Shown here piece by piece: positions 18,563 to 24,533 of a stretch of 38,147 nucleotides of DNA. Position 1 is the first letter of the stretch; the number at the start of each line of letters is the position of its first letter. The notes below the pieces were generated by a model, which was given only the letters and a program-made list of their open reading frames with translations, was not told where the DNA came from and ran no database searches. The stretch spans positions 1 to 38,147 of the forward strand of contig PHEV01000013.1 in the NCBI GenBank assembly GCA_002843035.1, read 5' to 3'. Both the position numbers and the translations under genes were made by a program. Source of the DNA: Actinobacteria bacterium HGW-Actinobacteria-5. GTDB lineage: Bacteria > Actinomycetota > Actinomycetes > Propionibacteriales > Propionibacteriaceae.

Positions 18563-18961
18563 ATGGCGAAGCTCACTACTGACGAGCTCCTTGAGGCCTT
18601 CAAGGAGATGACCCTGATCGAGCTCTCCGAGTTCGTGAAGCTGTTCGAGGACACCTTCGGTGTCACCGCTGCCGCTCCGGTGGCCGTGGCCGCCGCCGCC
18701 GCTCCGGCTGCTGGTGACGGTGGCGCGGCCGCAGAGGCCGAGGAGGAGAGCAGCGAGGTCGACGTGATCCTCGACTCCGCCGGCGACAAGAAGATCCAGG
18801 TCATCAAGGAGGTGCGTGCGCTGACCAACCTGGGCCTGAAGGAGGCCAAGGACCTGGTCGAGGCCGCTCCGAAGGTCGTCCTGGAGAAGGTGGCCCGCGA
18901 GGCCGCTGCCAAGGCGAAGGAGGCCCTCGAGGCCGCCGGCGCCGCGGTCACCATCAAGTGA
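18563..18961 (+). CDS. rplL: 50S ribosomal protein L7/L12
   Basis: 132 residues. The stalk protein recruits translational GTPases. N-terminal dimerization helices ([20 protein letters not shown]), an Ala/Gly-rich flexible hinge near 45-60, then the C-terminal domain [20 protein letters not shown] through [17 protein letters not shown]-type helices ending in VTIK. It lies 20 nt after rplJ. Unlike in most bacteria, rpoB does not follow directly: a terminator and a two-gene module intervene. Confidence 0.97.
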
Positions 18962-18988
18962 TCGGCTGACGCAGCCTGCAACTCATGC

Positions 18989-19022
18989 GGCGGCGATCCC
19001 CTCAGGGGGTCGCCGCCGTTTG
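18989..19022 (+). terminator. Terminator after rplL
   Basis: A 13-bp stem (18989-19001 with 19005-19017, one G-U) with loop TCA is followed by GTTTGG. It should stop most rplJL transcripts ahead of the rpoB region. Confidence 0.75.
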
Positions 19023-19077
19023 GCATGTCCGCGGTCCCGCAACGCAGCGCAGCGGGGCAGTGCGACGCGGGAACAGC

Positions 19078-19112
19078 AGAACGGCGGTAGCCATCGAGGC
19101 TACCGCCGTTCT
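19078..19112. terminator. Second, symmetric hairpin between rplL and peptide gene
   Basis: A perfect 15-bp stem, AGAACGGCGGTAGCC with its complement, and loop ATCGA. It lies 50 nt past the stop of the minus-strand peptide gene and after the rplL terminator, so it may insulate both sides. Neither flank has a proper T-run. Confidence 0.6.
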
Positions 19113-19162
19113 GACTCTACTGGGGGTGGTTGTGTGTGAGGTGAAGCTTGCTATTCAGGCGA

Positions 19163-19309
19163 TCACTTGAGCGGGTAGCTTCCCTGACCACCCATGATGG
19201 TCACGAAGCCACCGGCGTCCTGAACGTTGGTAGCGATCACGCTGATCGGAAGCACGGCGAGGGTTCCGGCAACCGCGGCGGCGGCGATAATCCTACGAAC
19301 GATGGTCAT
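19163..19309 (-). CDS. Small secreted pre-peptide, candidate signalling pheromone (48 aa)
   Basis: 48 residues with the shape of an exported pre-peptide: two Arg at positions 5-6 (MTIVRR), a 20-residue hydrophobic core (IIAAAAVAGTLAVLPISVIA), a signal-peptidase-like V-I-A before residue 27, and a 22-residue hydrophilic tail (TNVQDAGG...GGQGSYPLK). I do not recognise the family. It is transcribed away from the HTH-TPR regulator gene, with 109 bp between starts. Its -35 TTGACA lies in the shared palindrome. PapR, the pro-pheromone of PlcR, has the same length and layout. Weak points: it is very short and has no visible export partner, and a small membrane peptide or toxin is possible. CGGGG precedes the ATG; AAAGG further upstream may be the ribosome-binding site. 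Confidence 0.62.
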   Translation of the reverse strand: MTIVRRIIAAAAVAGTLAVLPISVIATNVQDAGGFVTIMGGQGSYPLK

Positions 19310-19327
19310 TTCCCCGAGGCCTTTCTC

Positions 19328-19387
19328 TTGACTGGCTCTATGGCAAGAACGTAGCCGGTACTTGACTAGCCTGTCAAGTTTTGACAG
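19328..19387. promoter_or_regulatory. Divergent control region with TTGAC/GTCAA dyads
   Basis: Four TTGAC half-sites stand between the peptide and regulator genes: 19328 (+), 19362 (+), 19373 (-) and 19381 (+). Two overlapping perfect dyads result: CTTGAC-N6-GTCAAG (19361-19378) and CTGTCAA-GTT-TTGACAG (19371-19387). The arrangement is what a dimeric HTH regulator would bind, and it overlaps the peptide promoter. Binding is inferred. Confidence 0.6.
19348..19377 (-). promoter_or_regulatory. Promoter of the small-peptide gene
   Basis: On the minus strand a consensus TTGACA (19372-19377), an 18-nt spacer and TACGTT (19348-19353) give a start about 30 nt before the peptide ATG. The -35 is part of both dyads, so a bound regulator would directly affect it. 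Confidence 0.55.
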
Positions 19388-19418
19388 AGTTTTCTGAGAA
19401 CCAAATCTGGGAGGTCGT

Positions 19419-20681
19419 GTGGACACGTCCAATGCTGCGCAGTTCGGCACCCTGCTTCGAGAGGCCCGCAGGCGGAAGGGGCTTTCGCAGGCTGCGCTCG
19501 GCGGTGACAAGTACTCCGGCAGCTACATCTCCCATCTCGAGAGCGGCAGGCGGAGCGCGACTCCGGAGGTCGTGGAGTTCCTGTCCCGCCGCCTGGGTGT
19601 CTCGCTGCTGGAATGGGGGCTCGCGCCCGCGCCGGCTTCGGTTGCCCCGCTCGGGAACACGATCGAGGACCTGCTCGTGGCGGAGCGTGCGCGCGCCGAA
19701 CACGACTGGGCGGCTGCGATCACTCACGCGACCGAGGCTGCGTCCCGGGCTGAGGCGGTCGGCGACACCGGCCGGCACTGGGAGGCCCTCTACGTTGTGG
19801 CCCAGGCCAAGTTCTCCTCGGGGGAGTTCGCCGAGGCCGCGAGGCGTGCCGAGGTGTTGTCGGCGCACGAGGTCGCCCGTCGGTTCGCGGTCGCGCGTGC
19901 GCAGGCGCTGAGCCTGGCATCGGTCGCGAACCGGGCCTCGGACCATCTCGGCTGGGCGGTCGCATACGGGGCCCGGGCGGTTGAGGCCGCCGACACTGCG
20001 CCTCCGATCATCCTCGCTGAGGCACTGATGGCCCTTGTCACAGCCATGACCGAGGCGGGGCACTCGTTGGTGGAGAGCGCTCCGTTCATGCGCAGGCTCA
20101 CCGAGCTCAGCCCCAGGCTCACCTCGGACCACTCGCGAGGGATGATCGCCTGGACGATCGGTTCGGTGTCCTTCAACGGTGGCGACATCGAAGAGGGCAT
20201 CCGCCAGCACGATCTCGCCAAGGACCTGCTCGATCGTCGGCGTGACCTCCGGATGTGGCTGCGCTACAACAGCACAGCCGCCCGGTGGCGACTGAACTGC
20301 GGCATCACCGAGGGCGTGGACGACATGCTCAAGACGGCGTCGCTGGGGCTGCAGATCCTCGGCAACAACTACGACGTCGTTGAGCTGCGCCAGGTGGAGG
20401 CCATGTACGCCATCCGCAGGGGCGAACCGCTCGAGGCGGCCCGGATCATGACCGAGGTCCTGGAGGATCCGGTTCTCGGCGCCGAGGGCATGTCGCGAGG
20501 CAACTCGGAGATGGTGCTCGCGCACGCGTTCCGGGCCCTCGGCCAGGTTGAGGCCGCCCGCCGGCGCTACGAGCTCGCGGCTCTGCAGTTCGAGGAAGAA
20601 GGGCGCCTCAGGGCCGCCGTCAACGCCTGGCGGCGAAGCGTTGGAGAAGAAGTTTCAGGAGATTTCTTGACAGTGGGTTGA
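19419..20681 (+). CDS. XRE-family HTH regulator with TPR-like C-terminal domain
   Basis: 420 residues. An N-terminal XRE/Cro HTH domain spans about 8-62 (FGTLLREARRRKGLSQAALG, then SGSYISHLESGRRSATPEVV). From about 75 to the end the protein is all-helical with repeating Ala/Leu/Arg helix pairs (AAITHATEAASRAEAVG, GEFAEAARRAEVL, GDIEEGIRQHDLAKDLL, GEPLEAARIM, GQVEAARRRYELAALQFEEEG). This is the pattern of tetratricopeptide repeats. HTH plus TPR is the architecture of RRNPP regulators, which bind a re-imported short peptide; other HTH-TPR proteins work without peptides. GTG start with GGAGG 4 nt upstream. The divergent neighbour encodes a secreted pre-peptide. Its stop codon lies within further TTGAC half-sites. 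Confidence 0.85.
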   Translation: MDTSNAAQFGTLLREARRRKGLSQAALGGDKYSGSYISHLESGRRSATPEVVEFLSRRLGVSLLEWGLAPAPASVAPLGNTIEDLLVAERARAEHDWAAAITHATEAASRAEAVGDTGRHWEALYVVAQAKFSSGEFAEAARRAEVLSAHEVARRFAVARAQALSLASVANRASDHLGWAVAYGARAVEAADTAPPIILAEALMALVTAMTEAGHSLVESAPFMRRLTELSPRLTSDHSRGMIAWTIGSVSFNGGDIEEGIRQHDLAKDLLDRRRDLRMWLRYNSTAARWRLNCGITEGVDDMLKTASLGLQILGNNYDVVELRQVEAMYAIRRGEPLEAARIMTEVLEDPVLGAEGMSRGNSEMVLAHAFRALGQVEAARRRYELAALQFEEEGRLRAAVNAWRRSVGEEVSGDFLTVG

Positions 20682-20696
20682 CAAGTCCGAGTCAAG
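20666..20696. promoter_or_regulatory. Second cluster of TTGAC/GTCAAG half-sites
   Basis: CTTGAC (20666-20671), TTGACAAG (20678-20685) and GTCAAG (20691-20696) lie across the stop codon of the HTH-TPR gene and match the half-sites of its own promoter region. TTGACA with TGGAAT 18 nt downstream could also be a promoter into the rpoB leader region. Confidence 0.45.
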
Positions 20697-20752
20697 TCTG
20701 ATGGAATCTACTTGTCGGCGCCCCCCTAATGCGTCGGATGAGTACACCACTT

Positions 20753-20810
20753 GGGCCGGTGTTCTGCAGCGTATGGATACCCCTCCCGTGCCTGCCGCAG
20801 ACACCGGCCC
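20753..20810. repeat. Imperfect inverted repeat upstream of rpoB
   Basis: GGGCCGGTGTTCTGC (20753-20767) pairs with GCAGACACCGGCCC (20797-20810) with one bulged T, enclosing a 29-nt loop. It is downstream of the HTH-TPR gene and could act as part of its terminator. No gene is supported within. Confidence 0.6.
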
Positions 20811-20866
20811 CGTGGCGTCCCGGGACGGTTCGCCGGCAGGAGTCGGCACCCGATCTCGACACCGCT

Positions 20867-20931
20867 AATCGGCCGGTCGGACCCGGCTCCCGCCTCCCCC
20901 TCCGGCGGGCAGCAGATCCGACCGGCCGATT
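20867..20931. repeat. 15-bp inverted repeat with nested hairpin, abutting rpoB promoter
   Basis: Arms AATCGGCCGGTCGGA (20867-20881) and TCCGACCGGCCGATT (20917-20931) are perfect. The 35-nt loop holds a second hairpin, CCCGCC with GGCGGG. The right arm overlaps the first base of the rpoB -35 box. It could terminate incoming transcripts or be a protein-binding dyad. Confidence 0.7.
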
Positions 20932-20959
20932 TGCGAGCCAGTGGACGTCGATGTAAGCT
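20931..20959 (+). promoter_or_regulatory. Promoter of rpoBC
   Basis: TTGCGA (20931-20936), an exact 17-nt spacer and TAAGCT (20954-20959) predict a start near 20966 and a 5' leader of about 95 nt before rpoB. Confidence 0.6.
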
Positions 20960-21059
20960 AACGCTTTGCCCATTGCCATCGACGACCCGTGAACTTGACG
21001 CGGGCCGTTCTGCGTGCAACGACACCGGTAGCAGCCGGGTTTTGCGGAAGGACTCCACC

Positions 21060-24533
<3,474 letters not shown>

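What the first reader, a model, noticed from the sequence alone, without database searches (positions are those of the whole stretch)
19163..20696. Candidate RRNPP-type peptide quorum-sensing module in an actinobacterium
A 48-residue pre-peptide (Arg pair, hydrophobic core, signal-peptidase-like site, 22-residue tail ending GSYPLK) is divergent from an XRE-HTH regulator with a TPR-like C-terminal half. This is the pairing of PlcR-PapR, Rgg-SHP and ComR-ComS, established mainly in Firmicutes. I know of no characterised actinobacterial member. The peptide's -35 box lies inside two dyads the regulator would be expected to bind. The proposal is that the tail is processed outside the cell, re-imported and bound by the TPR domain. 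The pairing is seen; the signalling is inference.
Basis: partly seen in the sequence, partly recalled or inferred. Interest (0 to 1): 0.88.

Follow-up and report, generated by a model that had tools for sequence, protein, structure and literature searches.

The report
Actinobacterial peptide-signal receptor and small RNA
A small exported-looking peptide, a regulator built to sense it, and a hairpin RNA behind the same kind of DNA switch form a conserved three-part module that looks like a peptide communication system in actinobacteria.

Summary
A 48-aa precursor (19163-19309, -) and a divergent XRE regulator (19419-20681, +) lie between rplL and rpoB. All 16 of 30 congeners with the regulator have the peptide ORF beside it, tail GQGx[W/Y]P; in the 14 without, no hit at E<0.01. 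Related regulators occur over the class Actinomycetes. In 76 of 99 fetched loci a signal-sequence ORF with a Trp-Pro-type or Cys-Cys tail adjoins them, some with 2-5 tandem cores. AlphaFold2 predicts HTH plus TPR superhelix.

New here: a TTGAC...GTCAA dyad overlaps the putative peptide promoter and another follows the regulator, ahead of a conserved RNA with C-rich hairpin loops (20709-20811). In the genus the RNA model matches in 16 of 16 genomes with the regulator and 0 of 14 without.

Best reading: an RRNPP-like circuit in which a re-imported peptide tail controls an XRE-TPR receptor that switches the peptide gene and a C-rich sRNA. Architecture and conservation are shown. Export, binding, promoters, transcription and quorum behaviour are inferred. 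Descent from RRNPPA is unproven. The rows listed by ten searches of an open-access library showed no prior description.

The parts
19163..19309 (-). 48-aa peptide precursor: signal sequence plus 22-residue tail ending GGQGSYPLK
   Evidence: ORF in the same divergent place in all 16 regulator-bearing genus loci with GQGx[WY]P tail
19348..19377 (-). Putative peptide promoter: -35 TTGACA (19377-19372), spacer 18, -10 TACGTT (19353-19348)
   Evidence: TTGACA-N17/18-TAnnnT in 14 of 16 genus loci; not found by the stricter consensus scan (0 promoters)
19362..19377 (.). Operator-like dyad TTGACT-N4-TGTCAA between peptide and regulator
   Evidence: 16 of 16 genus loci, 12 of 16 other family loci; only exact copy of TTGACWN4WGTCAA in the genome
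19371..19387 (.). Second overlapping dyad CTGTCAAGTTTTGACAG
   Evidence: TGTCAA followed by TTTGACA in 16 of 16
19419..20681 (+). 420-aa XRE-family regulator: HTH (about 8-66) plus predicted TPR superhelix (about 81-407)
20678..20695 (.). Downstream dyad TTGACA-N6-AGTCAA, overlapping the regulator's stop codon; may overlap the -35/spacer of a promoter reading towards the RNA
   Evidence: 16 of 16 genus loci, 8 of 16 other family loci, 0 of 2020 shuffles; promoter itself inferred
20709..20811 (+). Structured RNA element (model R1): hairpin 1 loop with CCCCCC, hairpin 2 loop with CCCCUCCC
   Evidence: 97.1% of cells paired, 9 pairs (all in hairpin 2) with changes on both sides; matched in 18 of 195 family genomes, all regulator-bearing
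20863..20935 (+). Third, long GC-rich hairpin with loop UCCCCCUCC; possible end of the RNA
   Evidence: 20704-20945: MFE -133.2 kcal/mol, z -6.35; conservation of this hairpin not established

Best explanation
A peptide-responsive regulatory module that works like the RRNPP systems of Bacillota. The precursor is exported by Sec and cut near VIA|TN. Its tail, or a fragment centred on GQGSYP, re-enters through an oligopeptide permease and binds the TPR superhelix of the XRE regulator. The regulator sits on TTGAC/GTCAA operators that overlap the -35/spacer of two promoters: that of the peptide gene (feedback) and that of a C-rich-loop RNA just downstream of the regulator gene, the likely output. 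The operator position suggests repression relieved by peptide. The C-rich loops could pair with G-rich ribosome-binding sites of target mRNAs. SHOWN HERE: gene pairing, conserved and constrained tail, the same dyad half-sites at both places, conserved RNA fold, co-occurrence of the parts. PREDICTED: TPR fold. INFERRED: both promoters, regulator binding to the dyads, export, re-import, peptide binding, direction of control, transcription of the RNA, its targets, quorum dependence.
For: Co-occurrence: peptide hits at E<0.01 in 14 of 30 genus genomes, all adjacent to the regulator, none in the 14 genomes without it; the remaining 2 regulator-bearing genomes (G018, G021) were missed at that threshold but show the ORF in place. 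Tail constraint. Class-wide pairing: 64 signal-sequence ORFs with W[PY] or CC tails in 45 strand-kb beside the regulator against 12 in 757 strand-kb elsewhere in the same 99 loci. Tail type follows the receptor tree (22 changes, shuffled mean 54.0). Tandem cores inside one precursor fit a cleaved signal. TPR model, mean pLDDT 86.3, with TPR neighbours that include Rap-pheromone structures. Dyads UP in 28 of 32 and DOWN in 24 of 32 family loci. Hairpin 2 of the RNA covaries, and the RNA co-occurs with the regulator. Eight SBP_bac_5 substrate-binding proteins in the genome.
Against: No binding, expression or peptidomics data; no complex could be predicted. In 23 of 99 loci no peptide was called by the motif rule; the window itself, L035 and the frame-broken L025 are among these, and L103 and L108 have signal ORFs in place without the motif. 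Similarity to RRNPPA receptors is confined to the HTH, the best folds are generic TPRs and MalT, and TM-scores are modest. Some close peptide pairs have dN/dS near 1 over the whole ORF. The downstream dyad has variable spacing (6-8 nt between TTGAC and GTCAA), unusual for one operator. The consensus scan found no promoter in 18900-21100 and no T-run terminator after the RNA. Hairpin 1 shows no compensatory pair, and one of five measures (further pair types) does not exceed shuffles. RNA-bearing copies lie at rplL-rpoB wherever context was visible, so a role as rpoBC leader is not excluded.
Confidence: 0.72

Rival explanations
1. Self-sensing only: the peptide or its signal-sequence remnant acts on the regulator in the producing cell (a secretion-status or feedback ligand) and is not a signal between cells.
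For: Nothing here shows extracellular accumulation; the genetic architecture would look the same.
Against: Conserved tails beyond the signal sequence, often after AxA-type sites judged by eye; importer-type proteins present. None of this separates the two readings decisively.
Confidence: 0.13
2. The peptide is a secreted effector (bacteriocin, RiPP or surface peptide) and the regulator merely controls its gene.
For: Secreted short peptides with Cys-Cys or Trp tails could be bioactive; tandem cores also occur in some RiPP precursors (recalled).
Against: In the window no modification, transport or immunity gene was recognised between rplL and rpoB (the ORF list shows peptide and regulator as the supported genes there); tail type follows receptor clades, as expected for ligand-receptor pairs; HTH-TPR regulator.
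Confidence: 0.07
3. Toxin-antitoxin-like unit: short hydrophobic peptide toxin, XRE antitoxin-like regulator and C-rich RNA.
For: Short hydrophobic ORF beside an XRE regulator; weak HTH similarity to TIGR03070 Y4mF-type antitoxin, 21.6 bits against a cut-off of 71.65, E<=0.01 in 23 of 31 relatives.
Against: Signal-sequence layout with a tail; repeated tail cores; TPR ligand-type domain; the strongest conservation is in the tail, not the hydrophobic segment.
Confidence: 0.03
4. For the downstream part only (a partial rival, so the odds do not add to the others): the dyad and hairpins are a regulated extra promoter and 5' leader of rpoBC rather than a separate sRNA, so the peptide would tune RNA polymerase synthesis.
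For: The element ends about 250 nt upstream of rpoB on the same strand, and the RNA-bearing copies sit at rplL-rpoB wherever context was visible; no terminator with a T-run found.
Against: Six genus genomes without the regulator keep rpoB but have no dyad within 420 nt upstream (in that same 420 nt, 12 of 16 with the regulator do, the other 4 lie further up); the RNA model matches 0 of 14 such genomes; two rplL-rpoB-located relatives (L027, L031) show no dyad downstream; a long GC-rich hairpin follows the element in the window.
Confidence: 0.25

Closest known systems
RRNPPA receptors (PlcR-PapR, NprR-NprX, Rgg-SHP, ComR-ComS, PrgX, Rap-Phr, AimR)
   Same: XRE HTH plus TPR superhelix; adjacent short ORF with export signal and conserved C-terminal tail; importer-type proteins in the genome; Rap-pheromone structures among Foldseek hits. 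Propeptides with several pheromone copies are known there too (PMC11343458, abstract and passages).
   Different: Actinomycetota instead of Bacillota; TPR half without detected sequence similarity; W-P or Cys-Cys tails; dyads overlap the putative core promoter of the peptide gene; an RNA follows a second dyad. Three surveys describe the family in Bacillota/Firmicutes (PMC10075063, PMC9765709, PMC12700828; passages); PMC9765709 says it set out to measure prevalence among Firmicutes, so it does not show absence elsewhere.
Staphylococcal agr-RNAIII (recalled)
   Same: Circuit logic: peptide gene and regulatory RNA with C-rich loops under one control.
   Different: agr uses a membrane kinase and a modified cyclic peptide; here a cytoplasmic XRE-TPR protein. 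Analogy only.
Actinobacterial 6C RNA (Rfam RF01066; its description with six-C loops is recalled)
   Same: Hairpins with runs of C in the loops.
   Different: The Rfam 6C model lists no match at this locus and exceeds its cut-off in 0 of 30 genus genomes; not found at E<=5 in 20640-21070.
NsdA-family TPR regulators (NCBIfam NF053720)
   Same: Actinobacterial TPR-type regulator; 8 of 31 relatives match, best E 5.2e-7.
   Different: The window protein does not match at E<=0.01.

Membership tests
RRNPPA | N-terminal XRE-type HTH | tested here: met
   HTH_31 42.3 bits (cut-off 27), HTH_3 39.9 (23); 31 of 31 relatives match at E<=0.01
RRNPPA | C-terminal TPR superhelix | tested here: met
   By prediction only: AF2 on 5 sequences, pLDDT 86.3, pTM 0.71, helix pairs 81-407; Foldseek TPR hits; Pfam TPR_2 in 10 of 31 relatives, not in the window protein; profile match to engineered TPR chains
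RRNPPA | Adjacent propeptide gene with export signal | tested here: met
   16 of 16 genus loci; 76 of 99 loci over the class. Signal judged by hydrophobicity rule, not by a signal-peptide program
RRNPPA | Conserved, constrained pheromone segment | tested here: met
   GQG.[WY]P in 16 of 16 with synonymous changes
RRNPPA | Homology of the TPR half to RRNPPA receptors | tested here: inconclusive
   Profile hits to ComR and PlcR cover only the HTH; Rap is among TPR folds, but LGN has lower E-values and MalT a higher TM-score (TMt 0.68); no AimR is named among the 50 viral hits shown, the top one being unnamed
RRNPPA | Mature peptide binds the TPR groove and changes DNA binding | not testable with these tools
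   No complex prediction or assay available
RRNPPA | Import by an oligopeptide permease | tested here: inconclusive
   8 SBP_bac_5 proteins over cut-off in the genome; use by this peptide unknown
6C RNA (RF01066) | Reaches the Rfam covariance-model threshold | tested here: not met
NsdA family (NF053720) | Match of the window protein to the NCBIfam model | tested here: not met
   No match at E<=0.01 for P0002

The most novel reading that the evidence does not exclude
Actinomycetes have their own large, undescribed class of peptide-pheromone/XRE-TPR receptor pairs with two receptor groups and two tail types (W-P, often in tandem copies, and C-terminal Cys-Cys). In the Propionibacteriaceae lineage the receptor, peptide and a dedicated C-rich-loop sRNA form a three-part circuit wired through one operator type, an agr-RNAIII-like logic built from RRNPP-like parts.
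Probability: 0.6. Interest if true: 0.93.

Novelty: new variant of a known kind. Interest (0 to 1): 0.86.

Why it matters
Signals described in Actinobacteria are typically small molecules made by enzymes (passage in PMC10075063); a 2016 review also speaks of cyclic or modified peptides and gamma-butyrolactones (PMC4748050, passage). A genome-encoded linear-peptide language with cytoplasmic TPR receptors across the class would open signalling in these organisms to synthetic-peptide experiments. The conserved tails name the candidate ligands directly. The dyad-linked RNA gives a concrete output to measure.

Tried and rejected
Arrest/leader peptide: rplL, the next gene on that side, is convergent with the ORF, and repeated tail cores do not fit; rejected. 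6C RNA: model does not match. rpoB leader as the explanation of the RNA: weakened, kept as a rival. Viral contigs: 4 stretches matched a pattern, none a relative. Plasmids: 11 records, 1 covering at least 80% of the query; not pursued. Genome-wide targets: one further place with one mismatch to the upstream operator (C177), not pursued; dyads of other spacing were not scanned genome-wide. One search used the wrong orientation for minus-strand loci and one search lacked its query file; both were replaced. The motif rule needs Trp or Cys-Cys and so labels the window itself 'none'; two of 101 loci (L017, L075) were dropped there for short regulator reads. In one search the W and CC counts of the class set (16 and 28 of 69) are not exclusive.

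Full report
WHERE IT IS. The window is contig C254 of a 3.84-Mb draft genome. The named close relatives include a Propionibacteriaceae MAG and a Propionicimonas sp. MAG; NCBI lists Propionicimonas under Nocardioidaceae. The module lies between rplL (18563-18961) and rpoB (reading from about 21060).

THE OBSERVATION. The HTH is unambiguous. Sequence alone hardly reveals the second half of this protein (Pfam TPR_12 at E 0.067). Among 31 relatives, Pfam TPR models do match (TPR_2 in 10). AlphaFold2 on five related sequences gives mean pLDDT 86.3 and pTM 0.71, with antiparallel helix pairs from residue 81 to 407. Foldseek's 50 listed PDB hits are TPR and similar repeat proteins: LGN (best E 1.6e-5), MalT domain III (TMt 0.68) and Rap proteins, some with bound pheromones; TM-scores are modest, 0.17-0.61 by query length.

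CONSERVATION IN THE GENUS. Of 30 genus genomes, 18 have a hit at E<=1e-3; two of these (G026, G028) are weak partial hits, so 16 carry the regulator, one of them (G017) in two pieces. All 16 have, in the same divergent place and 104-122 nt from the regulator, an ORF with Lys/Arg, a hydrophobic core and a tail with GQGx[W/Y]P. A direct search with the peptide gives hits at E<0.01 in 14 genomes, always beside the regulator, and none at that threshold in genomes without it; the test missed G018 and G021, whose ORF is nonetheless in place, and weaker hits up to E 1 occur elsewhere. Both invariant G and the P are encoded by several synonymous codons, Q always by CAG; tail median pN is 0.12 against pS 0.44. 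For the whole ORF the medians are 0.36 and 0.52, and some close pairs have dN/dS near 1, so the constraint is concentrated in the tail. The window is the only one of 16 with Tyr instead of Trp.

BEYOND THE GENUS. Regulator relatives at E<=1e-20 occur in 34 of 198 family genomes (9 of 29 genera). With the 31-row profile at 1e-10 they occur in 104 of 394 class genomes drawn evenly (40 of 138 genera; many of the weaker hits cover only the N-terminal part). I fetched 101 loci for counting. Of 99 with a usable regulator, 76 have a short signal-sequence ORF whose tail contains W followed by P, Y, K or T, or Cys-Cys at or near its end: 68 divergent upstream, 7 convergent downstream, 1 co-directional. 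Controls: in dinucleotide shuffles the W criterion was met 0 of 320, 0 of 320 and 7 of 1380 times for genus, other family and other class loci, the CC criterion never. Observed were 15 of 16 and 11 of 16 (W), and 16 (W) and 28 (CC) of 69, not exclusive. Within the same loci, 64 such ORFs lie in 45 strand-kb beside the regulator and 12 in 757 strand-kb elsewhere; some of the 12 may be the downstream peptides. The motifs were first noticed in part of these data, so the counts are descriptive; the shuffles and the elsewhere count are the controls. On a quick maximum-likelihood tree the tail types are clustered (22 changes, shuffled mean 54.0, 0 of 200 as low); near-copies add to such clustering. 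One side of the midpoint split holds all 38 CC-bearing rows and 2 W rows, the other 36 W rows, with 23 unlabelled rows spread over both. Several precursors hold tandem cores: five AGGGIWPK units in L031, three GEGIWY in L027, three GNWPDPM in L044, three DISWP in L055, three GGSWP in L073.

OPERATORS. Between peptide and regulator all 16 genus loci carry TTGACTNNNNTGTCAA followed by TTTGACA. On the peptide strand this embeds TTGACA, 17-18 nt and TAnnnT in 14 of 16; a stricter consensus scan of the window found 0 promoters. The upstream dyad is present in 28 of 32 family loci, and a TTGAC-N6-8-GTCAA dyad lies at the regulator's end in 24 of 32; shuffles over all 101 loci give 2 of 2020 and 0 of 2020. 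In the 69 loci of other families these motifs are rare (3 and 1). In the window's genome the upstream pattern has one exact place, this one, and one further place with one mismatch; the reversed control pattern has 7.

THE RNA. Just after the downstream dyad, 15 of 15 genus loci examined carry a conserved element of about 100 nt: hairpin 1 with a C-rich loop, a linker (GATGAGTACACC exactly in 11 of 15), and a longer hairpin 2 whose loop holds CCCCUCCC or CCCUCCC. On this alignment 97.1% of cells pair; 9 pairs have changes on both sides (10 of 500 shuffles as high); the covariation score is 0.338 (shuffled mean 0.197, 0 of 500 as high); further pair types do not exceed shuffles (19 against 18.4); slid structures pair at 32-42%. 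All 9 compensated pairs are in hairpin 2; hairpin 1 is supported by conservation only. The structure was derived from the same alignment, which favours it. The window stretch 20704-20945 folds at -133.2 kcal/mol, z -6.35. A covariance model built from the 15 matches in 18 of 195 family genomes: the 16 genus genomes with the regulator (15 of them the model's own sequences, the 16th, G017, independent) and two others, G141 and G151, where it also follows the regulator. It matches in none of the 14 genus genomes without the regulator, of which four (G024, G025, G026, G028) are at least 95% complete with at most 1% contamination. Sixteen of the 34 regulator-bearing family genomes thus give no match at E<=0.01. 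One further weak match in the own genome, on C146, E 0.008, was not followed. L021-L024 give weak matches in the same place (E 0.006-0.03). L032, L033, L035 and L036 carry different hairpins with runs of five C after the regulator (L035 by sequence, L033's dyad has one mismatch). L027, L028, L030, L031 and L034 show no downstream dyad. Rfam 6C does not match.

MECHANISM. The economical reading is an RRNPP-like circuit with feedback on the peptide gene and an RNA output. The dyads cover the putative -35 and spacer of both promoters, which favours repression relieved by peptide, but activation cannot be excluded. C-rich loops commonly act on G-rich ribosome-binding sites (recalled); targets were not sought.

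PRIOR WORK. I ran ten searches of an open-access library (two of them on 6C RNA and NsdA). Judged by titles and abstract beginnings of the rows listed (lists are capped), none describes such a system in Actinobacteria. RRNPP surveys, of which I read passages, place the family in Bacillota/Firmicutes (PMC10075063, PMC9765709, PMC12700828); at least one of them looked only there. A 2016 review of actinobacterial quorum sensing has no occurrence of 'RNPP', but its table lists 'TPR' among quorum-sensing proteins of several genera and its text speaks of cyclic or modified peptides (PMC4748050, passages). Preprints and most subscription papers are not held, so 'not in print' is limited to this.

CAVEATS. 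All evidence is comparative. Several genomes are incomplete drafts. In the family, 27 of 32 loci show both rplL and rpoB around the module, 2 one of them (at contig ends) and 3 neither; the RNA-bearing copies are among the first 29, so the leader rival stands until transcripts are mapped.

Noticed in passing
L031, L027, L037, L038, L044, L045, L052, L054, L055, L073 (upstream of the regulator): Precursors with 2-5 tandem copies of the W-P/W-Y core, reminiscent of multi-copy pheromone precursors; on the tree (8 such rows) the multi-copy label needs 6 changes, at least 4 forced by starred branches.
   Followed up: partly
L056-L105, e.g. L057, L070, L088, L099: A second class of precursors ends in Cys-Cys, sometimes WPxMCC; some lie convergent downstream of the regulator. 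Possible vicinal disulfide or other modification.
   Followed up: partly
window 19163-19189 (-): The window's own tail has Tyr-Pro where the 15 congeners have Trp-Pro: a possible change of signal specificity.
   Followed up: no
L090 and L092, downstream of the regulator: A second CC-tailed signal-sequence ORF downstream in addition to the divergent one: possibly two ligands per receptor.
   Followed up: no
L025 upstream region: The peptide frame is interrupted in this draft sequence (the locus also contains Ns); N-terminal signal and GEWP tail lie in different frames.
   Followed up: partly
G000:C177:48443-48458 and G000:C146:10900-10993: One near-match to the operator (one mismatch) and one weak extra match of the RNA model elsewhere in the genome; possible further regulon members or chance.
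   Followed up: no
L046-L050, L053, L059, L061, L069, L085, L086: Regulators of the family without a recognised neighbouring peptide: orphan receptors or precursors of another type.
   Followed up: no
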